Source of the DNA: Pseudomonas parafulva
GTDB lineage: Bacteria; Pseudomonadota; Gammaproteobacteria; Pseudomonadales; Pseudomonadaceae
DNA length: 64,000 bases
Reading direction: 5' to 3'
Assembly (NCBI RefSeq): GCF_002021815.1
Contig: NZ_CP019952.1
Coordinates: forward strand, 1,829,001-1,893,000
A program made the position numbers and the translations under genes. The stretch's first letter is position 1. Each line of letters opens with the position of its first letter. Under the pieces are notes generated by a model. That model had not been told where the DNA came from. It saw only the letters and a list, made by a program, of their open reading frames with translations, and did no database searches. This document shows positions 34,214 through 53,838 of this stretch, piece by piece.

Positions 34214-34302
34214 GGAAGCGTGGCCGAGTGGTTTAAGGCAACGGTCTTGAAAACCGTCGATGGGCAACTATCCTAGAGTTCTTATCTAAGGTGGTTCCCA
34301 GC
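34214..34302 (+). pseudogene. Decayed tRNA-Ser(UGA) copy
   Basis: The 5' three quarters look like tRNA-Ser: GGAAGCG acceptor strand, TG, D-arm GCCGAGTGGTTTAAGGC, anticodon arm ACGGT-CTTGAAA-ACCGT with anticodon TGA, and a long variable arm. The T-arm (loop TTCTTAT in place of TTCGAAT) pairs poorly. The 3' acceptor strand does not match GGAAGCG, and no CCA follows. The region is instead closed by an 8-bp repeat gcagctgg/ccagctgc (34208-34215 and 34298-34305). I judge it non-functional. Confidence 0.6.
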
Positions 34303-34336: not shown

Positions 34337-34427
34337 GGGAAATTGGCAGAGTGGTTGAATGCACCGGTCTTGAAAACCGGCGTACGTTAATAGCGTACCC
34401 AGGGTTCGAATCCCTGGTTTCCCGCCA
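34337..34427 (+). tRNA. tRNA-Ser(UGA)
   Basis: A complete 91-base tRNA with encoded CCA. Acceptor GGGAAAT pairs with GTTTCCC. The D-arm, the anticodon arm ACCGGT-style stem with loop CTTGAAA (anticodon TGA), the long class II variable arm (gtacgttaatagcgtac) and the T-arm with TTCGAAT are all intact. Its 3' end is the left boundary of the island, the usual attachment site for integrases. Confidence 0.95.
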
Positions 34428-37659: not shown

Positions 37660-38685
37660 TTATGATTTATAAGCCTTGAACAGCTTGTCCGGCGCAACAT
37701 AAACCTCCCCTCTGGCTCGTGAGAACGCCACATAAAGCTTGTTCCGCGTCTGAGCCACAGCCTCATGAAGCTTGCCATCCAGGTACTGTTTCCATGCCTT
37801 GATGCCCAAGACAACGCAGACATCCTCGTAGTGATCCTGGCCCTTACTGGCCCCCCAGTTCTGCGAGTAGCAGTCGTACTTGTAGTGTTGCTCCTGGAAC
37901 AGCTTAACGATGCCGTGTTCAGCATGCAGACGGTCTGCAAACTCCTGAGATTCGACCTTGATGATCTGGGTCACCCTGCCTTTGTGGGAGTCAATCTTGA
38001 TCTGCAGGTGGGTACTGATGAAATCGCAAACTGTCGTACCGCAACGCCAGCTCTTGCTCAGGGTCTCTTTGTCCACCTTGATTTTAGCCTTGGCGAACCG
38101 CTTCTCGTATTTTGTGATGTCGTCGTGCAGGGTGCTGTTCACCGAACCATCGCGACTGGTGTCGAAGGTGTGCTGGTAGAAATCACCTACGAACAGCATC
38201 TCGGTGTTAGCGGCTGATACCTGAAGCAGCAGGTTAAAGTCATGGCCGGCAAAATCCTGAACCTCGTCAACGTAGACTGAGTCGTAAAAACGCTCGATTC
38301 GCGCCTTGACCCCAGGTAGCAATCCCTCGACCTCGATCAGCTTGGCCAGTCGGTTGTGGTAGAGCCGACCACTCGGATCACGGTACCGCTCTCTATCGGT
38401 CAGTGCGTAATTACGCTGCGGCGGTCTCCTGAAATTCAGGCCTCTAGTGTTCATCTCGTTCTGCATGAATGGTCGGAAGCAGAAACCGTGTAAGAACGCA
38501 AAGTACGTCATGACGGTGATGTTCGACGGAAGGGTGCCGAACTTCTTGATGATGCTGTTGCGCAGATGGCTGTAGTTGTTCTCCGTGTAGGTGATGATCA
38601 GGGCGCGCTTCTCAAGGCTGAGCTTGCTGATGAGGTGGGTCGTTTTGCCCGACCCAGCCACCGCAAAGATCACTCGTTTATCCAT
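37660..38685 (-). CDS. Minimal UvrD-like SF1 helicase (GajB-like)
   Basis: A 341-residue superfamily 1 helicase. Walker A VAGSGKTTHL (about residues 9-18), motif Ia TYTENNYSHLRN, Walker B YVDEVQDFAGHDF (about 148-160), motif III FVGDFYQHTFD, and motif VI YVAFSRARGEVYV near the end. It is far shorter than UvrD (about 720) or GajB (about 490) and appears to lack the 1B/2B inserts. It overlaps the OLD gene stop by 16 bp. The OLD+UvrD order is that of Gabija (GajA-GajB) and class 2 OLD systems, in which the nuclease acts on foreign DNA. Whether this shorter form is active is unknown. Confidence 0.85.
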   Translation of the reverse strand: MDKRVIFAVAGSGKTTHLISKLSLEKRALIITYTENNYSHLRNSIIKKFGTLPSNITVMTYFAFLHGFCFRPFMQNEMNTRGLNFRRPPQRNYALTDRERYRDPSGRLYHNRLAKLIEVEGLLPGVKARIERFYDSVYVDEVQDFAGHDFNLLLQVSAANTEMLFVGDFYQHTFDTSRDGSVNSTLHDDITKYEKRFAKAKIKVDKETLSKSWRCGTTVCDFISTHLQIKIDSHKGRVTQIIKVESQEFADRLHAEHGIVKLFQEQHYKYDCYSQNWGASKGQDHYEDVCVVLGIKAWKQYLDGKLHEAVAQTRNKLYVAFSRARGEVYVAPDKLFKAYKS

Positions 38686-40238
38686 GCGATCGCATCCTTG
38701 ATGTACTGAGGGGCTACAAGCGCGGCAGACTTCTTCCTGAGCAACTCGAACGCAGCGTCGGCCTTGTTTTTCAGCATGTACTCTTGGACGGTCAGCTTCT
38801 TACGTCCGGCTGCGAACAGCTCATCGCAAGCCGCCTTGTTGTCCTGGTACAACCCGATCTCGAACGTCGAACGTGCGTCATCCCTGTCAGCGAAGATCTG
38901 TGCGCCCTTGTACAGGCTGTCTTTGTAGTTTTCCACGCAGTGCTGCTGGTAGTCGCCGTCATTGTCACGGATCGCTGCGACTCGGATGCCCAGTAGCTTC
39001 CCGAGCTCCAGATACCGTTTGAAGCTCGTGCCACCGATCGAAATGATGTGCACCTGATCGGCGTGTGGCGTACGTCCATTGGAGTGCTTCTTGTAGAGCT
39101 CTTCGATCAGGATGAACTCGGCATCACCCTCCACCAGAATGACCTTCTTGGAGAGCGCGAACTCCAGGACATTGTTATCCGGTGCTTTCATGAAGAAGCT
39201 GGCAGTCGGCTCGGTGAGCGCCTTCAGACGACCAGCCTGCTGGTCGCTACCCAAGAGCAGTGCATGCCGGAGGTCGAGTCGCGAACAGATGTGGCTACTG
39301 TGAGTGGCAATGAAAAGCTGCGTTCCTGCCGTGGCGGCCAGTTGCTCAACCAGTAGCTTCATCTTTGTGTGGCTGAGGTGATTCTCAGGTTCTTCCAGGA
39401 GGAGGGCATGGAGTTCGCCCTTGGCTTCATGCCGGCGCAGCGCGAACTCGGTCTTGATGAAGCACTGCTCACCCTTACCTCGATTCTCGATCGGGATGCC
39501 ATCTTTGGTGATGACGAGGTCGGTTTCGAGATTGGAGCGGATACTGGTTCTCACACCAAATTGGTAGGCGCCCAGGTCGGCATTGAGTGCGGCCAATTGA
39601 TTGTCGCGAAAAGCTTCCTTGCCGCGACGGTAGCGGTTTTCCAGGCTATAACGTTCTGGCGGCTCAGCGTTGAAGCTGAACACTGTGCGGGTGTACTCCC
39701 TCGCCGCGTATTCACTGTCGATACGAGAGCTGTCCAAGAGAAGGTGCTTCACCGGGCGGCGATAGCTGACATGGGGGCCACCCGAGAAGGTGTAGAACTT
39801 CACGCCGTAATATTCGTATGGGAAACCTTCCGGGTCGTCTTGCAAGAGCTGATGGATCGTTGTGCCGAATTCCTCGATCAGCGGAGCAATCTTCATCCCA
39901 ATGCCGTCAGTCATGGCGCCGGCTAGATTCTGCGTACCGTAGTAGCCTTGATCATCGCCTTCCTCGAGAAACACCTCCACGACCAATTCTGGCAACTGGT
40001 CGAGCGTACGTGGCCCCTGCTGAAAAGCCTTTACCGCAGACTGCGCCAACAATGACTCGTACCCGATGGTTTCAACGTGACTACGGCTGGCACTGAGTGC
40101 GAGATCGAGGCCAAGCAATACGCTGCTTTTGCCCGTCTCGTTGTCACCGATCAGTACATTCACCCCAGCATCGAACTCAAGCGTAAGCGACTCGAATTTC
40201 TTGAAGTTTTGGAGCATCACTTTCTTGATGGCAGGCAT
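38670..40238 (-). CDS. Class 2 OLD-family ATPase with TOPRIM nuclease domain (GajA-like)
   Basis: A 522-residue ABC-type ATPase fused to TOPRIM. Walker A GDNETGKS (residues 31-38), Walker B LLEEPENHLSH (about 278-288), and the H-loop region IATHSSHICSRLD. The TOPRIM part begins VILVEGDAEFILIEEL (about 362-377) and has the acidic pair AIRDNDGD (about 418-425), the metal site of OLD nucleases. The gene follows the pPIWI-RE gene by 55 bp and overlaps the UvrD-like gene, as in Gabija (GajA-GajB). In Gabija the ATPase senses nucleotide depletion and the TOPRIM site nicks DNA. Alternative: a non-Gabija class 2 OLD pair. Confidence 0.88.
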   Translation of the reverse strand: MPAIKKVMLQNFKKFESLTLEFDAGVNVLIGDNETGKSSVLLGLDLALSASRSHVETIGYESLLAQSAVKAFQQGPRTLDQLPELVVEVFLEEGDDQGYYGTQNLAGAMTDGIGMKIAPLIEEFGTTIHQLLQDDPEGFPYEYYGVKFYTFSGGPHVSYRRPVKHLLLDSSRIDSEYAAREYTRTVFSFNAEPPERYSLENRYRRGKEAFRDNQLAALNADLGAYQFGVRTSIRSNLETDLVITKDGIPIENRGKGEQCFIKTEFALRRHEAKGELHALLLEEPENHLSHTKMKLLVEQLAATAGTQLFIATHSSHICSRLDLRHALLLGSDQQAGRLKALTEPTASFFMKAPDNNVLEFALSKKVILVEGDAEFILIEELYKKHSNGRTPHADQVHIISIGGTSFKRYLELGKLLGIRVAAIRDNDGDYQQHCVENYKDSLYKGAQIFADRDDARSTFEIGLYQDNKAACDELFAAGRKKLTVQEYMLKNKADAAFELLRKKSAALVAPQYIKDAIAWINE

Positions 40239-40293
40239 CTCAAATCATTCCCACAGTGTTTGAGTTCAAGGTTGGCTAGCGGATATCGAGTGG

Positions 40294-42660
40294 TCAGGCC
40301 TTCTCGGCCAGGCGATTGGCATCACTCTTTCGGCGCATTTCCATGATGGGGTGGTCGTTGGCGATCTGAGCCCCCAGGTGCATGGGGCTTGGCAGTTTGA
40401 GCTGACCGTCCCACAAGGGCGCGTTACGGCAGAGCAGGGCGACTTGTTCTGCGATCGCGGTTGATGAGGCAAAGGAAGCCGGCTCTATGACGGTGATTTC
40501 GGTAACGCCGAGTTGCTGCCAGGGATCTGCCAACAAGAAATCACCGACCTGATAGCGGGTGTTTTTACGCTGGCCTTCAGCCTTGCTGTAGATCTTTGAA
40601 GGCGATACGAAGTAATAAACGGCAGGGCTTCGAAGTGACTGGAAGACGCCGATTTTCTGCCCAATGTACTGGGGCTGGCTAGGGTGCTCGGAGTGATTGC
40701 CGGACATCTGAGCAATGTCGTTATCAACCCTGATTCGCACAATGGCCGCATTGGCCGGGACGGGCGGCAGGCCGTTGTCGGGGCTGTCCTTCAGCCCCCG
40801 ATAGAATGTTCGCAAATTGCTATCGAGGCAGACAATCAGCGGGGTGTCTGCCTCATCCGTGGCCACCAGCATCGACCACGTCACGAGCTTGTTGATGGCC
40901 TCAGGGTTAATCAGCGAAGGCGCGGCATGAATGGCAGCGACGCCCTCAGTGAACGGATACCATTGCCCGCGGCTAGGGTCGTTCTTGACGAACCAGTAGA
41001 CCTCGCATTTCTGAGTATCAACCACCGTCCTGGTGATGACTGGCAGGTAGATCATGTCACCCTTTTCGTTAATGCGATCCAGGCGAATAGACAAAATCGT
41101 TGTGCCTGTCGGGATGGTCTTCGCCTTTACGAAAGCGGTTGGGAAGTAACCCGTTAGGCGGATCACCTCGGTGACAGTGTTGAGCGCCTTGTAGTCCCGC
41201 GACTCTTTTTTGGGCTTCGGTTTGTCCGGGTCTGGTACCTCATGCATGATGAACTGAGTCACGATGCCATGCTCGGCCAGTACCCTGCGGATGTAATGTT
41301 TTGGGTCTCTGTCTGAATCGAGTGCTGCAGCTACGGTACTGGTTTCAACGATCAGGATTGATGTGCCGAGCTTCTTGATTTCGGGGACGACGCTGTTTCT
41401 AAGCCACCCATCGAGTTCAATGGAAGAAGCGCTGCCCTCCAACATGGAGGTTGCGCCTTCGACAGCTAGGCGCGTCAGTAGAATTTCTGGAGGCGCGTTT
41501 TTCTTGAAGAACGGCATGGCCGTGCCCAAGGTCTCGCTGGCTCTGACCAGTCGCAGCATGATCTCGGAGTGTGCTGCCAGTACCGCAGCATGCACCTTCA
41601 CAGGCGTTGAGCCCGTCACATTTTTTGCCACGCGAATACTGGAAACGGCCTTACGAGCGAGCAGCGGCTGCGAGCCCTGGAGGTTGCGCAATAGGTGGAA
41701 GCAAGTTTGGTCGAGGAAGAGGGGCCCTGGGCCGGAGCCGATGGCGGGCTTGAGTGGTGGTGTGACGTAAATTGGCCTAACGAGACTGTCGACGGGTATA
41801 TCACCTTCAATGAGATCGGGCAGAGGCTGAACGCCCATGAATGCGAGCAGCTTGTTGGTCGGGAAGTCGTAAACAGTCTGCCAGCCGGTGTCAGTCTTTT
41901 TGCTTCGAATACCCGCTTTCACAATCGATTGGCCAGTGTGCACCCAAGCGTGTCGCTTACGCCCGATCGAGTTGGGCATGATCTGGCTTAGCTTCACGCG
42001 CAGTTGGATGAAAGGCTCAGTACAGTCGCGAAGTAGCTTCAGGCTGGGCTCGATGACATGCAGGGCGCTGGCATTGCGATCACCCGCGGGCATGATCGGA
42101 TCGTTCCAGGCAATCAGCGAGCCGTCGGAGGCTTGCTGCAAGGAAATGAGTTTGGGAATGGGATCGGGGTTTCCGTTCTGGGTCGACTCAAGAGGTGTCG
42201 AGCACATTGCCTGGCCAATCAGCCACGGAACAACGGTGTAGGCCAGGGGCGAAACTCCGTCGGAATTGATCAAGTCGCCTGGTAGCAGGGGATGAAGCTC
42301 CGTGACTGCGAGCTTGGCCTCCAGTCCCTCAACCTGCTCGTCCCACATGCGCATCACTTCGAGCGACCAGAGATACAGGATCTGATTGATCGTATCGACG
42401 GGCAGGGGCTTCAGCATGAGGATTGCTGACGCACCTTTGTCTTTGTAGGGGAACAGGTTGACGTCAACGGGCCCGCCCGAGACTGCGGCCAGCATTTCTT
42501 TCAGCGCATTCGTAGGCAATCCAGGGTGATGCTTTTTCCCCAGGTTCTGCAAGACTTGCCAAGCAGCCAGGTAGTGCTCTCCGATCTGGGCACGATAGGC
42601 ATGCGCGAGGGCTTGCGGGTCGAAACTGTAGAGGCTGGTGCGCAGGTCAAGGTTCTTCAT
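40294..42660 (-). CDS. pPIWI-RE Argonaute-like protein (DUF3962, MID and RNaseH-fold PIWI)
   Basis: A 788-residue protein that I assign to the pPIWI-RE family described by Burroughs, Iyer and Aravind. N-terminal part of about 400 residues (DUF3962-like), then a MID-like segment (LGTSILIVETSTVAAALDSD, EHGIVTQFIMHEV). The RNaseH-fold part holds LIVCLDSNLRTFYRGL, AAIVRIRVDNDIAQMSG, TEITVIEPASF and the C-terminal LPSPMHLGAQIANDHP. The R in VRIRV and the E in TVIEP may be the family's conserved R and E; that is my reading. It starts by a 4-bp overlap with the helicase stop. The family is predicted to act on RNA-DNA hybrids or plasmid/phage DNA. No PAZ domain expected. Confidence 0.8.
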   Translation of the reverse strand: MKNLDLRTSLYSFDPQALAHAYRAQIGEHYLAAWQVLQNLGKKHHPGLPTNALKEMLAAVSGGPVDVNLFPYKDKGASAILMLKPLPVDTINQILYLWSLEVMRMWDEQVEGLEAKLAVTELHPLLPGDLINSDGVSPLAYTVVPWLIGQAMCSTPLESTQNGNPDPIPKLISLQQASDGSLIAWNDPIMPAGDRNASALHVIEPSLKLLRDCTEPFIQLRVKLSQIMPNSIGRKRHAWVHTGQSIVKAGIRSKKTDTGWQTVYDFPTNKLLAFMGVQPLPDLIEGDIPVDSLVRPIYVTPPLKPAIGSGPGPLFLDQTCFHLLRNLQGSQPLLARKAVSSIRVAKNVTGSTPVKVHAAVLAAHSEIMLRLVRASETLGTAMPFFKKNAPPEILLTRLAVEGATSMLEGSASSIELDGWLRNSVVPEIKKLGTSILIVETSTVAAALDSDRDPKHYIRRVLAEHGIVTQFIMHEVPDPDKPKPKKESRDYKALNTVTEVIRLTGYFPTAFVKAKTIPTGTTILSIRLDRINEKGDMIYLPVITRTVVDTQKCEVYWFVKNDPSRGQWYPFTEGVAAIHAAPSLINPEAINKLVTWSMLVATDEADTPLIVCLDSNLRTFYRGLKDSPDNGLPPVPANAAIVRIRVDNDIAQMSGNHSEHPSQPQYIGQKIGVFQSLRSPAVYYFVSPSKIYSKAEGQRKNTRYQVGDFLLADPWQQLGVTEITVIEPASFASSTAIAEQVALLCRNAPLWDGQLKLPSPMHLGAQIANDHPIMEMRRKSDANRLAEKA

Positions 42661-45600
42661 CGAGCTTCCTTAGCTGATCGATCAATGTAGTGCGTGATAG
42701 CACTCGCGATGCCGTTGTGGTGCAGGAAAAACTGATTCCAGCTGCCTTCATTTTTCAGTCTTTGGACGGACTCCGAGAGCAGTTTTGCCCACGGCGTACG
42801 GCCATTGGTGAACGCTGCATCTGCGAAGTAGCAGGTCACCGGTGTGCCGCCGCGCCGGCCACGCCCGATCAACTGAGTGAGGGTCACCAGTATGTTCATC
42901 ATGGTGTAATGGCGGATGTTGGCGGGCTGCTGGCCAAAAGCTGGCGGAGCGGTGCGAATCTCGTTGAGGATTGAGCTCGCGATAGCACGTTCTTTGTGCA
43001 GCACATGCTGGAGGCTGGGCTCGGGACGCATCCGGTTCCAGGTTTCGTAGCTGATGTGCGCAAGGTTGTTCTCGGGGCTATCGGAGGCAGGTAATGGGCG
43101 CACGCAGATCACCACGCCACCGATCGCTGATAGGCCATCTTTGTTAACAATGTTGTGACCGCGAGCCATAGGGTGGAGGGCGCTGACCAGAATCGTTTTG
43201 TCCCGGTGTACCCCCTCAATGAACTGCGCAAGATCGTCGTACACCAGCGTGTGTTCAGCGTTTAGCAATGTGGGCTTGTACTCGCTAGCTCGACCTCGCA
43301 CCCAGCCAACAGTTGGGGTGGGAGATAGGCCAGCAAGCGTGATTGCCAGTAGCTCAGCATCGGCGTCGCTGCTGGCAACCAGGAGCAGTCGAGCACGATC
43401 CGCGGTGACTGGATCCTTGGCCAATGCTTTCAGGCGCTTCTCAATCCAAGGCCATAGTTCGGCGGCAAGTTGCTTGATCCGATCCTTTCGCTCGAAGAAA
43501 GGTGCACCTGAAACCGTCGTGGTGAGTCCTACATTCTCAAATGCAACTTGGCCTGCGGCGTCAGGCACATCAATGAAGTCCTTGGCCTTGAGGTCGTATG
43601 CACTGGCACCGGGGAAGTAAGCAGTGGCCGAGAAACCCATGAACATGCGTCTGACGCCGGCATACCCAAGCGACGCGAGCTCGGGAAGAGCTAGAAGGGT
43701 GCCGTGGGGGTCACCTCGCATTGCCACAACGTTCAGTGATGATGTCGCCTCGCTGGCCGGCTTGCGTTTGAATCCAAAGACGGTGCGATGCAGTGGGCCG
43801 ATGGGACTGAACGAGAGTGGCTCGCGGCCCTTCAGATTGCTGTAGACCTCTTGAGCATAGGGGACTTCGGCATTGGCAAAGCTGGGCAGTTCGATCTGCA
43901 GATTCCGTAAGGCGACTTCAAGATTGTCCAGAATGCCGCGCAGAATCAGTGCTGCTTTGAGGCGCTGCAGGTCTTTCGTGTTCAGTTTTGCCTTCAGATG
44001 ACCGCTACCCGCAAGTGTTGTGAGCAATCGACCCAACTCCATCGCCTGATTTTCAGGCCTGCTGGCCATCTCATTCGTCTGCCAGTAGATCAGGTTTTCT
44101 CGCAAGCTACGCAGGTGCTCCGGGACGCTGGTATTACCGCTGCTGTACAGCGCCTTTAGCGTCTCGAAGTCAATCTCCAGCTTGGTCATGATGTAGCCGT
44201 CTTCCGCCTCCGCCCAGGTTGTTTCCTTCTTGGGCCAGTCGAAGTACTTGCGTTGTTGAAGGTTCATCAACTGATCGACGTTGGTGCAGCAGAAGCCGAG
44301 GGCTAAGGACAAGCGAATTCGGCTACTTTCCTCGATGCCTGGAATATTCAGTCTGCTGAAAATCGCCGTGAAGAGCTGAACGAGCGGGCTTGCCTCGCCC
44401 GTGTTGCCTAACTGGAGGCTGAAGGCGCTTGTGTCGATCGCGGTTTTGAGCAGCCCGTCGATCTCATCGATCAAGAACACGGGTGAGATACGTAGTAACA
44501 GCTCGATGAAGCTACGAGGGCCCGGGAACTGTTCTGAATCGTTAAGCGGTATGCGCGATGTGCCGGACAGCAAGGCATGGTGATTGATGACGATCACGTC
44601 AGCATCCAGCGCTTGCGACAGCATCTTTGTCCGACCACAAGAGAATAGGAAGGGGCAATGACTTAAGCGCTTTGTCTCCTCCTTCGCATTGCCTTTGGAG
44701 GACACGACATGAAGCTTGAAGCAAGGCTCCGAGCCTGTCGGCATAGCTTCCAACTCGGTCGAGTAGGCGTTTAGCAAGCAAGCGTAATCGTAGGGATGAT
44801 CCTCATTGCGCTGCTTGAAATGTACGCCCGCGCGCTCATGGGTTCGAGAAAGAGAATGTAATGGCGCAACCTTCAGGTTTGGCGCTACGACTGATGCCGC
44901 TAGTCGCATGATCCTCACGGTATTGTCCAGCTCCACGTAGCCAGGAACCGCGATTACGACTTTGTGGCCGCGACTTGCGGCGTCAAGCGCCATCAATGAC
45001 ATCACTACCGTCTTGCCAGTACCGGTGGCGGCATTCACACGATAGAAGTTGCCCGAGCTTGCCGATCGCTGGCTGCTGTTGCCCCAAATGTTATGAAGGG
45101 ATGCGCAGTGTTGCGTATGCGGCGTCGAGGCGGCATCTAGTCGTTCGGCAATCGATCGGAGATTTTCGTAGTTCCAGCTGATATCAGAGATCGCTGGCGT
45201 ATCAGAAATCTTGAGGCATTGACCCGAGGACGGTAGTCGCTTCCTCTCGTTGGCCGGGATGCTGAAGATACGGGTGCGTTCAGCTGTGATGTACTTGAAG
45301 ACTAGGTTGCCGGATTCAGGCAGCTTTGCGATGGCAGGGGGCTGATGCCAACGTTTCAACGCATCCAAGCTTTCCTGGATAACCTGGTCGACATCCAAGA
45401 TCTCTTTGATGCGGTAGTGATCACCCTCGGCCAGCTTTGGCCGCAAGTTCTCGGGTTCAATCAGTTCAAAGGGGCATAGCTCGTCTGCAAGAACGATCGC
45501 TGCAATTTCGACGAACCGCGCCGGCTGTGCGAGCGATGAGGGTCGGAGCCGAAGCCCCATTGCGATCGTGATCTGCTGCTCGTCAGTGAGGCTGTCCCAG

Positions 45601-45725
45601 GTGCTCCACTTGTGGGTGCGCCCAGCAATGAGTGCAGCTGCATCTGCTAAGCAAGGCGTGCCTTCAGTGTGGCGTGCCGCCAGTGCCATGAACAGCGTGG
45701 TTGCGACGTCAGAAAGGGTTCGCAC
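42657..45725 (-). CDS. DinG/XPD-like helicase of the pPIWI-RE module
   Basis: A 1,022-residue superfamily 2 helicase. Walker A AATGTGKTVV (about 231-240), DinG-type VIVINHHALLSG (about 373-384) and Walker B FLIDEIDGLL (about 413-422). Motif VI is LTQLIGRGRRGG near residue 950. Four cysteines spaced between about 312 and 362 (ending HCPFLFSCGR) fit the 4Fe-4S cluster of XPD/DinG helicases. The N-terminal 200 residues are a family-specific extension. It overlaps the nuclease stop by 17 bp and the pPIWI-RE start by 4 bp, so the three are translationally coupled. Such helicases unwind R-loops or 5'-tailed DNA, which fits the PIWI partner. Confidence 0.82.
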   Translation of the reverse strand: MRTLSDVATTLFMALAARHTEGTPCLADAAALIAGRTHKWSTWDSLTDEQQITIAMGLRLRPSSLAQPARFVEIAAIVLADELCPFELIEPENLRPKLAEGDHYRIKEILDVDQVIQESLDALKRWHQPPAIAKLPESGNLVFKYITAERTRIFSIPANERKRLPSSGQCLKISDTPAISDISWNYENLRSIAERLDAASTPHTQHCASLHNIWGNSSQRSASSGNFYRVNAATGTGKTVVMSLMALDAASRGHKVVIAVPGYVELDNTVRIMRLAASVVAPNLKVAPLHSLSRTHERAGVHFKQRNEDHPYDYACLLNAYSTELEAMPTGSEPCFKLHVVSSKGNAKEETKRLSHCPFLFSCGRTKMLSQALDADVIVINHHALLSGTSRIPLNDSEQFPGPRSFIELLLRISPVFLIDEIDGLLKTAIDTSAFSLQLGNTGEASPLVQLFTAIFSRLNIPGIEESSRIRLSLALGFCCTNVDQLMNLQQRKYFDWPKKETTWAEAEDGYIMTKLEIDFETLKALYSSGNTSVPEHLRSLRENLIYWQTNEMASRPENQAMELGRLLTTLAGSGHLKAKLNTKDLQRLKAALILRGILDNLEVALRNLQIELPSFANAEVPYAQEVYSNLKGREPLSFSPIGPLHRTVFGFKRKPASEATSSLNVVAMRGDPHGTLLALPELASLGYAGVRRMFMGFSATAYFPGASAYDLKAKDFIDVPDAAGQVAFENVGLTTTVSGAPFFERKDRIKQLAAELWPWIEKRLKALAKDPVTADRARLLLVASSDADAELLAITLAGLSPTPTVGWVRGRASEYKPTLLNAEHTLVYDDLAQFIEGVHRDKTILVSALHPMARGHNIVNKDGLSAIGGVVICVRPLPASDSPENNLAHISYETWNRMRPEPSLQHVLHKERAIASSILNEIRTAPPAFGQQPANIRHYTMMNILVTLTQLIGRGRRGGTPVTCYFADAAFTNGRTPWAKLLSESVQRLKNEGSWNQFFLHHNGIASAITHYIDRSAKEAR

Positions 45726-46743
45726 GAGTGGTCAGTTCCTTGATGCATTCGCTTTGGGTGAAGATCTGCAAGCCCGGGCATACACTTCTGAGCCATGGAA
45801 CATGAGCCTGCTGGTAATCCGGGATGACGAACCAGCGCATCGTTGTTGGTCGCATTGATTCCAAGTAGGCGCCCAAGGCACGCGGTGATATCCAGACCTT
45901 CGCATCAATGTCGAGCGTCATCCCGCCGTAGGTGACTCGCAGATCTGAGCGGTCTACGTCTGGCCACAGGGTGACATCGAGTCCATGCTTTGAGAGTTTC
46001 TCGGCCAATTGAAGCTCGAGCAGCCCGGGCAGCAATGTGTACTTCCAGAGTGCGCTTTTGAGCATGTGGCGCTTACCTGCAGCTTCGCCTTCCAGCACTT
46101 GGTCGGTAACAACATTGATCAGCCGTCCTTGCATCCATCGGTACAGGCTACTTTTCTCTCTGCACCAGGCAGAGTCGCACTGAACCTCTCGTCGCTGTGG
46201 GTTCATGGGCCAGCGGCATTCTGGGCACTGATAGAGCTTTCCGTTGTGAGCAAGGTGCTCCGGAATGGGCTCATAAAAGTCATCGAGATTCCTGCCAAGC
46301 GGGATGAAAACGCTAGCCGCCCGCACAGGATCGATTACGGCGTTCTCGATCAGGAAGCGTCTGAAGCGCCTGTAGAGCTCATCCCCTTTGGAAATCACTT
46401 GGCACAGGTCACGTACTTCTCGGACGATCGACTGGATCTCTTCCCAGAGCTGATGAACATCGAGCTCGAGGAGCATTTCATTGCAGGTCTGGGTAGAGAT
46501 ACCAGAAGCGAGGAGGGGGCCGGTGTAATCAAACCGTACGGACTCTGGAAGCCATGACTCCAATGGGAGCGACAATTGACGTTCCAGCTGCAGGGCTGAA
46601 CTGAGGGGCTCGCCGGGAGAGAGGCGCCAAAGATGTGCCTGGGCCTCTCGGAGCAACAACAGTGCGGCGCCTCGATCCGACTCGCACTGGGACGCTGCCT
46701 TTGACAGAAGCCTGAGTAAGTACTCCGATCGTTGGGTGTCCAC
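45709..46743 (-). CDS. PD-(D/E)XK nuclease with zinc ribbon, pPIWI-RE-associated REase
   Basis: A 344-residue protein, first gene of the five-gene defence operon. A central zinc ribbon has Cys 173, 176, 189 and 194 (CPEC...CDSAWC). The C-terminal restriction-endonuclease fold is read from LLELQLAEKL (Glu about 243), DRSDLRV (Asp 267) and LDIDAKVW (Asp 280, Lys 282), a D-(D/E)XK pattern. The first 130 residues are helical with no recognised family. Known three-gene pPIWI-RE islands contain an REase protein of this kind. The helicase gene overlaps its 3' end by 17 bp. The exact catalytic set needs a structure-based check. Confidence 0.78.
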   Translation of the reverse strand: MDTQRSEYLLRLLSKAASQCESDRGAALLLLREAQAHLWRLSPGEPLSSALQLERQLSLPLESWLPESVRFDYTGPLLASGISTQTCNEMLLELDVHQLWEEIQSIVREVRDLCQVISKGDELYRRFRRFLIENAVIDPVRAASVFIPLGRNLDDFYEPIPEHLAHNGKLYQCPECRWPMNPQRREVQCDSAWCREKSSLYRWMQGRLINVVTDQVLEGEAAGKRHMLKSALWKYTLLPGLLELQLAEKLSKHGLDVTLWPDVDRSDLRVTYGGMTLDIDAKVWISPRALGAYLESMRPTTMRWFVIPDYQQAHVPWLRSVCPGLQIFTQSECIKELTTRANPF

Positions 46744-47211
46744 GTGTACGTCCCCTGCGCCTTATCCCAAGAGGGCCAGGCTTGCTCGCAATCGTGCGAA
46801 AGCCGGCAACGGCAAGCAGTCAAGGAGCGAGGATGAGGCCGCCACGCGGCAGGTCTATCTGTTCCGAGCGTTGTCTTGCTTAACCCGATGATCTAACAAT
46901 TGATTTTAGTTTGCCACTACTCAAGGTGTGACGTTTTGTGTGGGAATGGGCTGTAAGCGTGAAAGGAATTCAGTTGGATTTATTCGTATCCGGATAGCTA
47001 TTCAATGGGATGTGTCATGCATTAATTGCGGTCTAGCCAAAGACTGCTGCTGACTTAATTGGAGAAGCCTGGAAATGTCTTGCATTTCACGACCAAAGGA
47101 TCATTACGACTGAAGCAGGAAGCGCTATCATCCTGCCATTAGCTCAAGCGGGGGCCCTCTGGCCGGCCAATTCCGGCACTCCCTTGGGCATCACGACAAG
47201 GAAGGTTGCGC
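46744..47211. promoter_or_regulatory. 468-bp divergent control region of the defence genes
   Basis: Separates the five-gene operon (left) from the giant helicase-nuclease (right). It becomes AT-rich from about 46890 to 47110. No helix-turn-helix regulator gene lies nearby, and I see no strong palindrome that would mark an operator. Confidence 0.5.
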
Positions 47212-50200
47212 ATGGACGACATCGTTCAGCCCCTCGCTGCTCAAGAAGAAATCCCACCTAAAGAAGTCAAGATTCTGGCCACGTTGGTGGCGAAGCTGAA
47301 CCTTGCCGACTTCCAGAACGCCATTCCCGTGATCCGAGAGCTTCGCATCGCGAACGAGACCGAAGAACGCTTCGTCAATGTGACCCTGACATTGACCTCA
47401 GAGCCTGAGGTGTTCAAGGCCAAGGTCTGGCGAATCGACGAAGTCGCACCTGACAGCTTTCGAGTTATTCCGGGGCTTGATCTGGTCTTGGACGGCCCAT
47501 TGCTTAGTCGCCTTACAGAGGCGGAGCTTTCCACTTTTACCTTTGTCCTTGAGGCCGATGACAAGGCGTCCGAAAGTGGTCGGAAGGAAGTTGCTCGCCT
47601 GGAGCAGGTTGTAGACCTTTTGCCGCGTAACCAGTGGGGTGGGCTTCGTCATATCCCAGATACGACTGCCGCTTTCGTACAACCCAATGATCCGGCAGTT
47701 GAACGGTTGTTGAAGCAGACGGCTGAATTGCTGCGCCTCAGTGAGAAGTCTTCGGCGCTCGATGGCTACGAGGGTGGTGCGAAGCGTGTCTGGCAGCTGG
47801 CGTCAGCAGTCTGGGGCGCCGTGGCACGAATGAAGCTTGATTACGCGTTGCCACCGGCGAGCTTTGAGCAGACTGGCCAAAAAGTGCGCAGTCCCAGCCA
47901 AATCGCCGACACTGGTTTGGCGACCTGTATGGATCTCACTCTGCTTTTCTGTGCAGCTCTTGAGCAAATTGGGCTGAACCCTGTGATCGTCTTTACCCGG
48001 GGGCATGCCTTCGTGGGTCTGTGGATGAAGCCAGAAGAGTTTACAACTGCTCTGGTGGATGATGTGACCGCAGTGCGTAAACGGGTAAAGCTACGTGAGC
48101 TGATACTTTTCGAGACCACCCTTGTTACTCAGAACCTTGCTCCGTCTTTCTCCTATGCCGTCGAGCGCGGAGCGAAACAGATAGCCGAAGACTCGGACAG
48201 CGACTTCGAGATGCTGCTCGACATACGCCGCGCACGTCTGCAGCGTATCAAACCCCTGGCGAGCTCCGAGGCTCAGATACCACGAGTTGTTCCGGAAGTA
48301 CCGGACGAGAACGCTCCGCTGCTGGTTGAAGACGGCTTGGACATGCCTGATGAAGCTCATGAGGTGGTCGTCGATGACTTTTCCAAGCTCGATCCTGCGG
48401 ATCGTCTGGGCCGCTGGCAGCGCAAGCTTCTGGATCTTTCTCTTCGAAACAACCTTCTGAACTTCAAGATGGGCAAGCGGGCACTGAAATTGGAGTCCCC
48501 GGATCCAGGAGCCCTTGAGGACATATTGGCCAGTGGTCAGTCGCTGAAGCTGCTCACCCGTCCAGACCTCATGGATGGTGCTGATCCGCGGGAACGCGCT
48601 CTCTACGAGCAACGCGAGCGTGAGGATGTTCGTCGCCGGCATGCCGAGGATGCACTTAAGCGCAGAGAGGTGTTCGTTGCGCTGACATCCAACGAGATGG
48701 ATGTTCGACTCACCGAGCTGTACCGAGGTGCTCGTACCGCGCTGCAGGAAGGCGGCTCCAATACGCTCTTCCTGGCTATTGGCTTCCTGAGTTGGACACG
48801 TGAGGACAGGGCAGGGCAGAAGTATAAAGCGCCCCTTGTGCTGGTTCCGGTCACGCTGGAGCGCAGAAGCGCTCGTTCCGGTTTCACCATGGTGCTCCAC
48901 GATGATGAGCCACGCTTCAACCCAACCCTTATTGAGATGCTTCGGCAGGACTTTGAGTTGGGCTTGGGTTCCCTGGAGCACGAGTTGCCTCGGGACGATT
49001 CTGGTCTTGATATCGCCGGCATTTGGAACAAGGTCGGACATGCCATCAAGGACATCCCAGGCTGGGAGTTGAGCGAAGACGTCGTACTGTCGATGTTTTC
49101 GTTTGCCAAATACCTCATGTGGAAGGATCTGGCCGAGAACGCTGAGCATCTGCGGCAGAGCCCTGTCGTTCAGCACCTCCTGGATACCCCACGCGATTCG
49201 TTCGTTTCGGACACACCATTCCCAGAGGCTGAGTCACTGGATCGTGATTACGGCCCGACCGATGTTTTCTGCCCACTGCCATCTGACTCATCTCAGTTGG
49301 CTGCAGTGATGGCGGCAGCCAAGGGCAAAGACTTCGTGCTCATCGGCCCGCCCGGTACGGGCAAAAGCCAGACGATCTCGAACATGATCGCTCAGTCGAT
49401 CGCTCAAGGGCGTCGCGTGCTGTTCGTCTCAGAGAAGATCGCCGCGCTTGATGTCGTGTACCGTCGCCTGCGCGAGATTGGCTTGGGTGAGTTCTGTCTG
49501 GAGCTTCACTCCAGCAAAGCTCGGAAAACTGATGTGCTGGCCCAGCTGCAGTCCGCTTGGGAGGCGAAAGGACAGGTCGATTCCGCTGCATGGGAGGTTG
49601 AGGCTCAGCGCCTCGCAACGCTGCGCGACAGCCTCAACATTTACGTGGAGCGACTGCACCAGCGCCATCGCAACGGTTACACCATTTACGATGCGATTGG
49701 CACCGTCACTTCGGGTGGCGATGAAGCTGTTGCTCCTGTTGGTTGGGTGTCACCTGACATGCATGACCAGAAGGCCATGCTCGAGCTACGTGAGTTGGCC
49801 GATCGTCTTGAAGTAAACGCGCAGGCTGTGGGATATAGCCACTTAGTGGGCAATGCGTTGTCCGCTATAGGCCAGGCGGAATGGTCGCCCCATTGGCAGC
49901 AACAGCTGGTGCAGGCAGCTCGCGATGTATTGCCTGCTGTGCTGGATGTGCAGCGTGCGGCTGATCGGTTCGTTGAATTAGCTGGGCTTCCTGCTTCGGA
50001 CTACACCCCGAGTGTACTGGAGGGGTTGTCACTTCTTTCCCAGGCACTGCCCGCGGCAGCAGGACAGGATTGGCGCTTCGCGTTGCGCCCTGATGCCCGT
50101 TCCATTTCTCAACGGCTAAGCGATGGCTGTGCGTGGGTTGAACAACACCATGAGATCAACGCTAAGCTTTCGCCGCTCTGGCCTTCTCGCGTTGTGGCCG

Positions 50201-53200
50201 ATGCGAAGCAGGGTATTGAACTGCTGCAGCAACGTCGTACCACCCTCGGAGAGCTCAGTCCGGCCTGGCCGGAAAGTGTCACCGATGTGCTTGCTCAGGC
50301 GATGGCACTGCTTGGCCAAATAGTAGAGCTCAAGCAGCAGCTCAGTGCGACCTATGGCGATACGATCGAATCGCTCGACATCGATCTGTTGCTGCGTGAG
50401 TGGAAAGAGGCTGATGAATCGTTCTGGCCAAAATCCTGGTTCGGAAAGCGTCGTATTACGAGTTTGCTAGCCCCGACTCAAACCACTGCAGGCGAGGCCG
50501 ATCACGGTAAAGATTTGGCCACCTGGGCAGAAATCCGCGCCGTGCGCCGCGCTATTGATGAGCTTGAGCCAGGGCACGAGTGCGTTGCCGTTTGGCAAGG
50601 TTCTAAGTCTGACGCTGAGAAGCTTTCCACGTCGATCAAACTTCAAGAGGCCATTCGGCTCCAGCAATCAGACTCGGACTGGATCGATGATGGGCTCCAG
50701 TTGGTCGAGCAAGGCCAGCTGGGTGATGCATTGAAGGAAGAACTGCGACGACTTCGCACGCTGATTCGCCTTGATAGCGATATGGCTGCCTTGTCCGATC
50801 TTGGCTCGAGCACTCAGCAGCTTTGGTGCGGCAAGGACACTAACATTGAACTCCTTACTGCAGCGCTGCGCTTCCAGGCTGAGCGTCGGGATATCGAAGA
50901 ACGTGGTCGCCTTGTTGATGATCACCCAGAAGTGCAGGAGGGCCGCTGTGGAGCCTTGCTGAAAGGTGACTTCGATCTGTTGAAGGAGCGGGCAGCGGTT
51001 GAACGTGATCTGTCCGACCTGGCTGACCTGCGAGAACTGGTGCCGGTCTGGAGTGACCTGAAGACCAAGCTTGAGATTGCACGTCAGGCTGTGGTGTTCC
51101 AAGGGCAGGTAGCGACTGCTGTCGCGAAGCTCGCGCTGAACCCGGAGCAGATTGCAGCTTACAAGGCTCCCCTTCAAACGCTCTTGGGCGATGGCAACGC
51201 TTTGCTAGAGCCTGAAGGTGCGATAGCTCTCGCAGGCGTTGCTCTACGTGAAAAACTTGCGTTGCTGCAGGAGCGTTCATCGCAGCTGACGTCGATCGGC
51301 CACTTCACCGAGGGCGGTGCTGATGAGACCGCACACCTTTCGTTGAATGACCTCAAAAATAATTGCGAAACCGTAGTTTCTTCCGAGGCACGACTCAAGG
51401 CATGGTGTGCCTGGAGGAAGGTGCGCGATGAGGCCTTCGCCGTTGGCCTCGCCCCAATTGTCCAGGCTATGGAAAGCGGAGCGATCACCTCTGGAAAAGT
51501 CCGCCGCGTCTTCGAGGTGAATTACGCTCGCTGGTGGCTGAATACCACTGTCGATAACGAGGAAGTGATCCGGACATTTGTCAGCGTTGAGCACGAACAG
51601 CGTATTCGCGATTTCCGAGCGCTGGATGACAAGTTCACCGAGCTGACGAAGGACTGGCTCCGTGCTCGGCTGTGTGCTGACCTGCCGAGTCAGGACAGCG
51701 TGAGCCGCTCTTCAGAGTGGGGCTTGCTGCGTCATGAGATGGGCAAGAAGACCAAGCATATTCCATTGCGTGAGTTGATGACTCGAGCACCAGAGGCGCT
51801 CACGAAACTCACGCCGTGCTTGCTGATGAGCCCGCTTTCGATCGCTCAGTACCTGCCGCCGGCTTCGACCCCGTTTGACCTCGTCATTTTCGACGAGGCC
51901 TCTCAGATCCCGGTCTGGGATGCGATTGGTGCGATGGCGCGAGGGAAGCAGGTTGTTATGGTGGGCGACCCGAAACAGCTCCCGCCGACCTCGTTCTTCG
52001 ATCGGGCTGAGTCCACGGCCGATGACGAAGATGTTGAGGCGGATCTCGAAAGCATCCTGGATGAATGCATCAGCGCGAACCTGCCGATGCGCAATCTGAA
52101 CTGGCACTACCGTAGTCGCCACGAGAGCCTGATCGCGTTCTCCAACCAGCGTTACTACGGCTCCAAGCTGGTGACGTTCCCGTCGCCATTCACAGCTGAT
52201 AAGGCTGTGAGGCTGTGCCCGGTTGCTGGTGTCTACGACAAGGGCGGCTCACGTACCAACCTGATCGAAGCAAGAGCCCTAGTTGCTGACCTTATTGCTC
52301 GCCTTCAGTCGCCAGCCTTCCGTGAGAGCCGTCGTACAGTAGGTGTTGTGACGTTCAATGGTGAGCAGCAGAAGCTCATCTTGGACATGCTTGATGAAGC
52401 ATGCCGGAAAGACCCATCGCTGGACAGCTACTTCTCTGAGTCGGAACTCGAGCCCGTGTTCGTCAAAAACCTGGAAAGTGTTCAGGGCGACGAGCGAGAC
52501 GTCATCTACTTCTCGACTACCTACGGGAAGGATGCTGCCGGCGCGATGTCGATGAACTTCGGCCCGATGAACCGTCCTGGTGGCGAGCGTCGACTCAACG
52601 TTGCGATTACGCGTGCTCGTCAGGAGCTGGTGCTGTTCTCGACCCTGCGGCCTGAGCACATTGACCTTGCCCGCACGCACGCCATTGGCGTTCGTGACCT
52701 GAAGCACTTCTTGGAGTTTGCGGTACGTGGGCCGCAGGCTTTGGCTGAAGCCAATTTCGGTAGCGTGGGCGGTTTCGATAGCCCGTTCGAAGAGGCGGTC
52801 GCAGCTGCCTTGGCCAAGAAGGGTTGGCAGGTTCACACCCAGATTGGCGTCTCGTCGTTCCGAGTCGACCTGGGAGTCGTTCATCCCGATGCACCTGGAA
52901 AGTTCCTTGCCGGGGTTGAATGCGATGGTGCTACTTACCACCGCAGTGCAACTGCACGTGATCGCGACAAGTTGCGGGAGTTCGTCCTGCGGGGGCTTGG
53001 CTGGGAGATCGTGCGAATCTGGTCGACAGACTGGTGGGTTGATGCTGCAGGGACTGCGGAAAAGGTTCATCAACAATTGACGGAGCTCCTGTCCGAGTCG
53101 AGAGCCAAGCAAGCCGTCATCGACGCAGCGCATGAGGTGGAGCGCTTGAAAATCGATGCCGCCATGGCTGAGGTTATTGAGGTGGTTGATCGAGTTGCCG

Positions 53201-53838
53201 TCGTTGCTTCGCCCCACGCTGATGAAGCCAATGATCCGATTGGCGCTTTGCCAGAATTGAAATACGCAAGAGCGGCCACGGCTCAAGGAGTTGAGGCTGT
53301 GGTCACGCCTTACGTGCCAGTGGAACACGTGGTTTACAGAGAGGCAGACCCTACCAAGGCTGTAGATACGGTTGATCCAGACCGTTTCTTTGAAGCAAGC
53401 TACTCAGCCACGTTGGAGCAGATGATTGCACACGTGGTGGCGGAAGAAGGGCCGGTGCTCGATTCGGCACTTGCACGGCGTATTGCGCGTGCTCATGGCT
53501 GGGTTAGGACGGGCTCACGCATTCGTGATCGTGTCGACCAAATCGCGCGGGAGCGATTCCGTTCCCATGAAGAGGAGCAGGCTGGAACCTTCTTCTGGCC
53601 CACAAATATCGACTCTGATTCAAATGTCGTCTTCCGCAGGCCTGGTGATGACAATTCGATTCGCCCACTCGCTGAAATCTGCTTGCCCGAACTACGTGCT
53701 CTAGTAGACGAAATGTCCAAACACGGACACGTTGGAGAGGGATTGGTTTATGCGGTGGCCAAAGAAGCAGGGGTCGTTAAACTCGCCCATGCGGGCCGTC
53801 AGCGGATCGAAAAGGCGATAAGGACTATAGCCGAGTGA
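47212..53838 (+). CDS. Giant COG1112-type helicase-nuclease (transglutaminase-like, DUF4011, SF1 helicase, Vsr-like nuclease, DUF3320)
   Basis: A 2,208-residue protein; ATG at 47212 has AAGGAAGG upstream. Order: N-terminal domain (1-190), transglutaminase-like part with GLATCMD (Cys about 238) and RGHAFVGLW (His about 263), and DUF4011 (RWQRKLLDLSLRNNLLNF, about 398-420). The SF1 helicase has Walker A GPPGTGKSQT (about 711), Walker B FDEASQIPVWDAIG (about 1557), WHYRSRHESL, VQGDERDVIYFS and motif VI LNVAITRARQELVLFS (about 1796). A Vsr/DUF559-like nuclease follows (FRVDLGVVHP, GVECDGATYH, about 1880-1945), then DUF3320 (about 2050-2208). Several large defence helicases share parts of this plan, including Mokosh helicases (also COG1112, but with a PLD nuclease). 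It stands alone, divergent from the pPIWI-RE operon. Role: foreign-DNA restriction, inferred. Confidence 0.88.
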   Translation: MDDIVQPLAAQEEIPPKEVKILATLVAKLNLADFQNAIPVIRELRIANETEERFVNVTLTLTSEPEVFKAKVWRIDEVAPDSFRVIPGLDLVLDGPLLSRLTEAELSTFTFVLEADDKASESGRKEVARLEQVVDLLPRNQWGGLRHIPDTTAAFVQPNDPAVERLLKQTAELLRLSEKSSALDGYEGGAKRVWQLASAVWGAVARMKLDYALPPASFEQTGQKVRSPSQIADTGLATCMDLTLLFCAALEQIGLNPVIVFTRGHAFVGLWMKPEEFTTALVDDVTAVRKRVKLRELILFETTLVTQNLAPSFSYAVERGAKQIAEDSDSDFEMLLDIRRARLQRIKPLASSEAQIPRVVPEVPDENAPLLVEDGLDMPDEAHEVVVDDFSKLDPADRLGRWQRKLLDLSLRNNLLNFKMGKRALKLESPDPGALEDILASGQSLKLLTRPDLMDGADPRERALYEQREREDVRRRHAEDALKRREVFVALTSNEMDVRLTELYRGARTALQEGGSNTLFLAIGFLSWTREDRAGQKYKAPLVLVPVTLERRSARSGFTMVLHDDEPRFNPTLIEMLRQDFELGLGSLEHELPRDDSGLDIAGIWNKVGHAIKDIPGWELSEDVVLSMFSFAKYLMWKDLAENAEHLRQSPVVQHLLDTPRDSFVSDTPFPEAESLDRDYGPTDVFCPLPSDSSQLAAVMAAAKGKDFVLIGPPGTGKSQTISNMIAQSIAQGRRVLFVSEKIAALDVVYRRLREIGLGEFCLELHSSKARKTDVLAQLQSAWEAKGQVDSAAWEVEAQRLATLRDSLNIYVERLHQRHRNGYTIYDAIGTVTSGGDEAVAPVGWVSPDMHDQKAMLELRELADRLEVNAQAVGYSHLVGNALSAIGQAEWSPHWQQQLVQAARDVLPAVLDVQRAADRFVELAGLPASDYTPSVLEGLSLLSQALPAAAGQDWRFALRPDARSISQRLSDGCAWVEQHHEINAKLSPLWPSRVVADAKQGIELLQQRRTTLGELSPAWPESVTDVLAQAMALLGQIVELKQQLSATYGDTIESLDIDLLLREWKEADESFWPKSWFGKRRITSLLAPTQTTAGEADHGKDLATWAEIRAVRRAIDELEPGHECVAVWQGSKSDAEKLSTSIKLQEAIRLQQSDSDWIDDGLQLVEQGQLGDALKEELRRLRTLIRLDSDMAALSDLGSSTQQLWCGKDTNIELLTAALRFQAERRDIEERGRLVDDHPEVQEGRCGALLKGDFDLLKERAAVERDLSDLADLRELVPVWSDLKTKLEIARQAVVFQGQVATAVAKLALNPEQIAAYKAPLQTLLGDGNALLEPEGAIALAGVALREKLALLQERSSQLTSIGHFTEGGADETAHLSLNDLKNNCETVVSSEARLKAWCAWRKVRDEAFAVGLAPIVQAMESGAITSGKVRRVFEVNYARWWLNTTVDNEEVIRTFVSVEHEQRIRDFRALDDKFTELTKDWLRARLCADLPSQDSVSRSSEWGLLRHEMGKKTKHIPLRELMTRAPEALTKLTPCLLMSPLSIAQYLPPASTPFDLVIFDEASQIPVWDAIGAMARGKQVVMVGDPKQLPPTSFFDRAESTADDEDVEADLESILDECISANLPMRNLNWHYRSRHESLIAFSNQRYYGSKLVTFPSPFTADKAVRLCPVAGVYDKGGSRTNLIEARALVADLIARLQSPAFRESRRTVGVVTFNGEQQKLILDMLDEACRKDPSLDSYFSESELEPVFVKNLESVQGDERDVIYFSTTYGKDAAGAMSMNFGPMNRPGGERRLNVAITRARQELVLFSTLRPEHIDLARTHAIGVRDLKHFLEFAVRGPQALAEANFGSVGGFDSPFEEAVAAALAKKGWQVHTQIGVSSFRVDLGVVHPDAPGKFLAGVECDGATYHRSATARDRDKLREFVLRGLGWEIVRIWSTDWWVDAAGTAEKVHQQLTELLSESRAKQAVIDAAHEVERLKIDAAMAEVIEVVDRVAVVASPHADEANDPIGALPELKYARAATAQGVEAVVTPYVPVEHVVYREADPTKAVDTVDPDRFFEASYSATLEQMIAHVVAEEGPVLDSALARRIARAHGWVRTGSRIRDRVDQIARERFRSHEEEQAGTFFWPTNIDSDSNVVFRRPGDDNSIRPLAEICLPELRALVDEMSKHGHVGEGLVYAVAKEAGVVKLAHAGRQRIEKAIRTIAE

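What the first reader, a model, noticed from the sequence alone, without database searches (positions are those of the whole stretch)
37660..46743. Five-gene defence operon joins a pPIWI-RE module to an OLD/UvrD (Gabija-like) pair
Minus-strand order is REase, DinG-like helicase, pPIWI-RE, OLD ATPase-nuclease, UvrD-like helicase, with overlaps of 17, 4 and 16 bp and one gap of 55 bp. That spacing implies one transcription unit. pPIWI-RE and OLD/UvrD are each known as defence-type modules; I do not know of a published description of the two as one system. They could work together, the PIWI/helicase recognising R-loops or invading DNA and the OLD nuclease executing, or they could be a recent chance fusion.
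Basis: partly seen in the sequence, partly recalled or inferred. Interest (0 to 1): 0.88.

Follow-up and report, generated by a model that had tools for sequence, protein, structure and literature searches.

The report
Two-module bacterial defence operon, conserved
In some Pseudomonas bacteria, a predicted Argonaute-like DNA-defence system and a small Gabija defence system sit in one five-gene unit that appears to be inherited together, although each half also occurs alone.

Summary
PADLOC models name all five. The arrangement is not unique: five other Pseudomonas loci have it (two are near-copies of each other), with gaps -17, -4, 52-70, -16. Three further contigs appear to hold both pPIWI-RE and GajA. 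Their distances co-vary across eight linked pairs (r = 0.967). Window and strain Kh13 are alike only over the five genes and about 300 bp upstream. No promoter-like or terminator-like site was found in the 55-bp gap. So this looks like a mobile composite operon, not a one-off. But the halves are separable: of 22 surveyed genomes with this pPIWI-RE, 4 have the full set; of 26 with this GajA, 19 show no pPIWI-RE trace and 3 keep only its C-terminal stub before an open GajAB. In one of these a deletion removed the triad and left a conserved promoter-like block upstream of GajAB. I read it as two co-transcribed, probably complementary modules rather than one obligate machine. My searches found no paper describing the combination. 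Function is untested.

The parts
45709..46743 (-). gene 1: pPIWI-RE-associated REase (helical Y domain, Cys4 zinc ribbon, PD-(D/E)XK-like D...DAK motif)
   Evidence: PF18154 3.7e-18; C173/C176/C189/C194, D264, D267, D280, K282 invariant in 13 rows
42657..45725 (-). gene 2: DinG-type SF2 helicase; Walker A, DEID box, four invariant cysteines C316/C335/C357/C363 (Fe-S-type position)
   Evidence: PprDinG 754 bits; cysteines and DEID in 23 of 23 rows
40294..42660 (-). gene 3: pPIWI-RE, Argonaute/PIWI-fold protein; D528, E572, D613, H761 present (catalytic role inferred from position)
40239..40293 (-). 55-bp gap between pPIWI-RE and GajA; no promoter-like or terminator-like site found
   Evidence: 52-70 bp in five other five-gene loci
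38670..40238 (-). gene 4: GajA-type OLD ATPase-TOPRIM nuclease, active-site positions present
   Evidence: GajA 351 bits; E370, D425, D427 invariant in 28 rows; best solved match 8sm3 (Gabija GajA), E 2.5e-15
37660..38685 (-). gene 5: short GajB-type SF1 helicase (341 aa); GSGKT, DEVQD and SRAR motifs present
   Evidence: GajB 170 bits
46875..46950 (-). conserved promoter-like block upstream of the REase (GTCACA-18 bp-TAAAAT at 46932-46903)
   Evidence: 100% in L002, 95% in L099, 91% in L003; not found in 23 other loci searched, among them the five-gene loci L010, L011 and L048

Best explanation
A mobile composite defence operon. One transcript, started upstream of the REase, carries two complete and separable defence modules: the pPIWI-RE triad (guide- or R-loop-sensing PIWI protein, DinG helicase, REase) and a compact Gabija pair (GajA OLD nuclease, short GajB helicase). 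SHOWN by sequence: gene content, spacing, recurrence, parallel divergence, similarity limited to the five-gene block in one pair of strains, separability. INFERRED: co-transcription; that both parts act on invading DNA; and the likely gain from keeping them together, namely that the triad opens or cuts foreign DNA and that GajA/GajB then attack the linear, RecBCD-free DNA so produced, while each part still works alone.
For: Same five genes and overlaps in six loci, five if the near-copies L011/L048 count once. Parallel divergence of pPIWI-RE and GajA in eight linked pairs, r 0.967, 15 of 40320 label permutations as high; with six loci, 6 of 720 (three of the eight pairs are taken as linked from equal contig length and source name). 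In 398 Pseudomonas genomes pPIWI-RE is in 12 and GajA in 20; both in 3, and in all 3 they are adjacent in the same order and strand. Window 33001-58000 against L002 (22 kb): similarity only over window 37664-47050, ending at the end of GajB. No promoter-like or terminator-like site in the gap. In L099 a deletion joins the conserved upstream block to the pPIWI-RE stub and an open GajAB. Stand-alone GajA pairs: dN/dS 0.010/0.133 (L052/L053) and 0.012/0.138 (L100/L101); L053 keeps a pPIWI-RE stub. Gabija is reported to favour injected DNA ends without RecBCD (abstract and section headings of PMC12407980).
Against: No experiment; the handover from triad to Gabija is conjecture. Most triads lack GajAB: 22 genomes carry this pPIWI-RE (relatives down to 36% identity), 4 have GajAB, 1 a truncated GajA, 17 no close GajAB. 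Co-residence alone is weak: 3 against 0.60 expected, P 0.018, but P 0.092 (2 against 0.53) once the window's own genome, which brought the question, is left out. Linked plus stub GajA rows are not one clade (AU p 1.1e-31), so linkage arose more than once or was often lost. On the pPIWI-RE tree the linked label is no more clustered than shuffled labels (9 changes against 9.6, 173 of 500 as low), though rows of unknown context counted as unlinked there. The upstream block is missing from L010, L011 and L048. Parallel divergence could partly mirror host relatedness.
Confidence: 0.57

Rival explanations
1. One obligate five-part machine: the pPIWI-RE triad is the sensor and GajA/GajB the triggered effector (or the reverse), so that neither half protects alone in these strains.
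For: Fixed order and spacing in six loci; parallel divergence. In the window's own pPIWI-RE clade of 17 tree rows, the 7 rows of known context are all linked: window, L002, L003, L011, L048 seen directly, P0005 and P0011 by equal contig length; the other 10 are of unknown context.
Against: Three loci lost the triad and kept open GajAB (L099, L054, L053); L076 and L083, which are 100% identical over 11.9 kb and so one case, keep the triad with a truncated GajA; stand-alone GajAB pairs look constrained; both modules are described or predicted as separate systems in print (PMC3702460, section 6; PMC10781630, passages).
Confidence: 0.13
2. Neighbours of convenience: two independent systems that ended up together in defence islands and travel together without any functional gain.
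For: Defence genes cluster: ProA lies near three pPIWI-RE loci, upstream and divergent in the window and L078, downstream and convergent in L049, and a different OLD/UvrD pair lies 3.5 kb behind the triad in L077. GajA relatives are in 2303 plasmid records while no plasmid matches pPIWI-RE. Co-residence without the own genome is not significant (P 0.092).
Against: In the ORF lists I read (L004, L006, L008, L009, L047, L049, L074-L082) no other gene recurs within 100 bp downstream of pPIWI-RE on its strand, whereas GajAB does, at nearly constant spacing over deep divergence. Pure hitchhiking predicts faster scrambling.
Confidence: 0.28

Closest known systems
pPIWI-RE three-gene system (Burroughs, Iyer and Aravind 2013, PMC3702460)
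   Same: Same three genes in the same strict order (REase, DinG, pPIWI-RE), overlapping ends, zinc ribbon plus helical Y domain in the REase, cysteine-rich insert in the helicase
   Different: Here two more genes, GajA and GajB, follow on the same strand; the abstract and section 6, which I read, mention no such addition
Gabija (GajA-GajB; PDB 8sm3, PMC10781630, passages seen)
   Same: OLD-type ATPase-TOPRIM nuclease followed by a UvrD-like helicase with a DEXQD Walker B; the GajA model's best solved match is GajA 8sm3
   Different: GajB is 341 aa against 494 aa in the crystallised GajB (PMC10681800, passages), with too little room between its motifs for the 2B/Cacc subdomain (inferred); GajA is 14% identical to 8sm3 in the structure match; encoded behind a pPIWI-RE triad
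Gabija-tmn pair in E. coli (seen only as a statement citing earlier work in PMC12735699; I take the work to be Wu et al. 2024, title seen in a reference list)
   Same: A Gabija system reported to act in synergy with another co-occurring defence system
   Different: Different partner; I saw nothing there on a fixed operon

Membership tests
pPIWI-RE three-gene system | Order REase, DinG, pPIWI-RE with overlapping or close ends | tested here: met
pPIWI-RE three-gene system | REase with helical Y domain, zinc ribbon and REase fold | tested here: met
   PF18154 above cut-off; Y domain 25.0 bits, just under its cut-off of 26.7; Cys4 invariant
pPIWI-RE three-gene system | DinG-type helicase with four-cysteine (Fe-S) region | tested here: met
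   C316, C335, C357, C363 in 23 of 23 rows
pPIWI-RE three-gene system | Absolutely conserved R and E of the PIWI domain | tested here: inconclusive
   R642 and E721 are invariant in 32 of 32 rows, but I could not map them onto the residues named in PMC3702460
pPIWI-RE three-gene system | PIWI/Argonaute fold | tested here: met
pPIWI-RE three-gene system | RNA-dependent restriction of invading DNA (predicted in the paper) | not testable with these tools
   needs experiment
Gabija | GajA: ABC ATPase plus TOPRIM with complete active site | tested here: met
Gabija | Adjacent UvrD-like GajB helicase with DEXQD motif | tested here: met
Gabija | GajB with four subdomains including Cacc/2B | tested here: inconclusive
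   341 aa and about 65 residues between motifs IV and V (motif names recalled) suggest it is missing; no GajB structure was predicted
Gabija | 4:4 GajA-GajB complex and anti-phage activity | not testable with these tools
   needs experiment

The most novel reading that the evidence does not exclude
A new composite immune system in which an Argonaute-like, guide- or R-loop-sensing triad hands its target to a dedicated compact Gabija nuclease, the two having co-evolved as one inherited unit since the ancestor of the linked lineages; stand-alone copies would be escapees.
Probability: 0.17. Interest if true: 0.85.

Novelty: new variant of a known kind. Interest (0 to 1): 0.52.

Why it matters
No solved relative of pPIWI-RE turned up by sequence, and among the papers my searches found, one 2013 prediction describes it in depth and one other lists its REase as transposon cargo (PMC8649781, passages). 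A naturally coupled partner of known biochemistry (Gabija), plus natural deletion variants that keep one half, gives a ready test of what the PIWI triad does and whether guided sensing can feed an end-attacking nuclease. It also adds a conserved case for the open question of when neighbouring defence systems cooperate.

Tried and rejected
Recent chance fusion: rejected, see parallel divergence. Plasmid-borne coupling: no pPIWI-RE match in 72,556 plasmids. Wider taxonomic range of this pPIWI-RE subfamily: only the own genome among 369 of the class; other pPIWI-RE subfamilies were not surveyed for Gabija neighbours, which is a gap. Known RNA family in 33800-56000: only the tRNA. att-like repeats bounding the island: none convincing among the 20 of 22 repeat families shown. 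Coupling in viral contigs: 2 pPIWI-RE loci (L083, L084) and 17 GajA loci; L083 has a truncated GajA behind the triad; of the 8 closer GajA loci (L112-L119, 43-59% identity) none has the triad; the other 9 were not examined. Sequence search of the PDB found no relative of the DinG protein or GajB at the limits used. Testing whether linked plus stub GajA rows form one clade: rejected, which cuts against a single origin without losses. Clustering of the linked label on the quick trees: not on the pPIWI-RE tree, yes on the GajA tree (5 changes against 10.7, 0 of 500 as low); both counted unknown contexts as unlinked.

Rows dropped before counts: two GajA hits of 30-31% identity (G357, G359) were left out of the 26. 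L051 (pPIWI-RE fragment) and L013/L050 (split pPIWI-RE) count among the 22 pPIWI-RE genomes without close GajAB, L047 too although its REase and DinG were not found; L079 has an OLD-type protein of another kind upstream on the other strand and is counted as without. L084 is a viral contig and not in the 22. The family and genus searches used different queries and E-value limits (family model 1e-20, protein 1e-60; 1e-60, 1e-120). L111 was mis-cut and not used in a codon comparison; L013's pPIWI-RE and L076's GajA were left out of the trees. On checking, completed the stub test for all 19 GajAB loci called trace-free (10, 9); it looks only at 160 bases upstream. The odds for the best explanation were lowered from 0.60 to 0.57 and for the neighbours rival raised from 0.25 to 0.28.
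Full report
Observation. The five genes are exactly where stated, on the minus strand, with the stated overlaps and the 55-bp gap. Family models name them as the REase, DinG and pPIWI-RE of the pPIWI-RE triad and as GajA and GajB of Gabija. The window is G000:C1:1829001-1893000 of a 4.69-Mb single-contig genome. I take the genus to be Pseudomonas: G676, ranked 'same genus', has its match at the same contig place as the named strain Pseudomonas sp. Kh13, L002. The region has lower G+C (0.51-0.58) than most of its surroundings (about 0.60-0.66) and starts beside a tRNA-Ser gene.

Recurrence. A genome-collection scan gave 12 pPIWI-RE loci; L002, L003, L010 and L011 have all five genes. L048, from the family survey, has them too but is a 99.97% copy of L011 with a frameshifted REase. 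The family survey found pPIWI-RE in 12 of 398 genomes and the genus survey in 12 of 398; two are shared, so 22 genomes. Of these, 4 have GajAB directly behind it (G000, G200, G388, G676), 1 has a truncated GajA (G470/L076, identical to viral contig L083 over 11.9 kb), 17 have no close GajAB. GajA of at least 46% identity is in 12 genomes of the family survey and 20 of the genus survey, six shared, so 26. Of these 4 are linked, 3 keep only a pPIWI-RE stub directly upstream (G652/L099 residues 751-788 at 92%, G325/L054 residues 744-788 at 78%, G216/L053 about 20 residues, score 59 against a maximum of 28 in 5000 shuffles), and 19 show no trace by tblastn or in the 160 bases upstream. Of the 14 with GajA at least 74% identical, 4 are linked, 3 have a stub and 7 neither. 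Gaps in the six five-gene loci are -17, -4, 52 to 70, -16.

Is it more than chance? In the genus survey both genes are in 3 of 398 genomes, against 0.60 expected (P 0.018); without the window's own genome it is 2 against 0.53 (P 0.092). So co-residence alone proves little. What chance does not give is that in every one of these three genomes the two are adjacent, in the same order, strand and close spacing.

Co-inheritance. Eight linked pairs show pPIWI-RE identities from 96% to 52% and GajA identities from 97% to 73%. Five pairs are read directly; three (P0005/P0043, P0011/P0050, P0039/P0061) are inferred from equal contig lengths and source names, and one of those contigs, 6408 bp, is too short for all five genes. 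The distances correlate at 0.967; 15 of 40320 relabellings reach this, or 6 of 720 with two of the three closest loci removed. In the pPIWI-RE tree, linked rows fall in two parts: a 17-row clade around the window, whose 7 rows of known context are all linked, and a second part where L010, P0039 and the truncated L076 lie among triad-only and unknown rows. In the careful GajA tree, 7 of 9 linked rows and all 3 stub rows lie in one 12-row clade with one stand-alone and one unknown row, while L010 and P0061 lie among stand-alone or unknown pairs. Either the unit is old and often loses a half, or it formed more than once; the present data do not decide.

Unit of transfer and transcription. Window 33001-58000 and L002 are alike only over window 37664-47050; L003 shares more on the 3' side and stops near 46950 upstream. 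A 76-base block at 46875-46950 with a promoter-like pair is conserved in L002, L003 and L099, and was not found in the 23 other loci searched, L010, L011 and L048 among them, so other five-gene loci must use another start. In L099 a deletion of about 6.4 kb, relative to L002, joins this block to the pPIWI-RE stub, leaving GajAB open behind it. This fits one transcription unit and a Gabija module worth keeping alone, but it is one natural deletion, and transcription itself was not tested.

Mechanism. The 2013 paper (abstract and section 6 read) predicts that the triad senses DNA-RNA hybrids and restricts invading DNA. Gabija in P. aeruginosa is reported to favour injected DNA ends not held by RecBCD (abstract and section headings). 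Putting these together, the triad could create the ends that GajA/GajB attack. That step is conjecture.

Literature. pPIWI-RE by that name occurs in one paper; pPIWI with Gabija in none; a wider search for pPIWI, DUF3893 and DUF3962 gave 14 papers, of which only the 2013 paper holds the DUF terms; the other 13 I judged by the listing only. A search for Gabija, DinG, PIWI and OLD together gave two papers; in the passages of PMC8649781 that I saw, Gabija and the PIWI REase are separate rows of a cargo table, and the other, a review, I saw only in the listing. The library lacks most subscription journals and preprints, so absence is weak evidence.

Noticed in passing
47206-53838 (+); L049 10822-17451; L078 1-2487: A 2210-aa ProA-family anti-phage protein (NF058533, 2331 bits) lies divergent from the REase, 462 bp away; relatives lie convergent right after pPIWI-RE in L049 (86% identical) and upstream, divergent, with one ORF between, in L078 (73%): a recurrent neighbour of pPIWI-RE.
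   Followed up: partly
L076, L083, L084: Some pPIWI-RE triads look like cargo of an integrated filamentous phage (Zot-like and coat-like genes upstream, recognised by eye); L076 and L083 are the same sequence over 11.9 kb and carry a truncated GajA, L084 a REase-to-pPIWI-RE deletion fusion.
   Followed up: partly
L077 13851-18019; L049 43-3767: A different, larger OLD (765 aa) plus UvrD (624 aa) pair lies 3.5 kb behind a distant pPIWI-RE triad in L077; L049 has a similar-looking 624-aa protein upstream of its triad (by eye).
   Followed up: no
34221-34259 and 34344-34382: A tRNA-Ser-like stretch just before the tRNA-Ser gene at 34337-34427 is 87% alike over 39 bases: maybe a second or remnant tRNA at the island edge.
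   Followed up: no
54085-54896 (-): An AraC-type regulator appears split into an N-terminal and a C-terminal piece at the right edge of the low-G+C region.
   Followed up: no
L099 11626-12678; L052, L053, L048, L011: A protein of about 350 aa without Pfam match (E limit 0.01) follows GajB in these loci of the window's GajA clade; tblastn finds no relative in the window, L002, L003, L010 or L054.
   Followed up: partly
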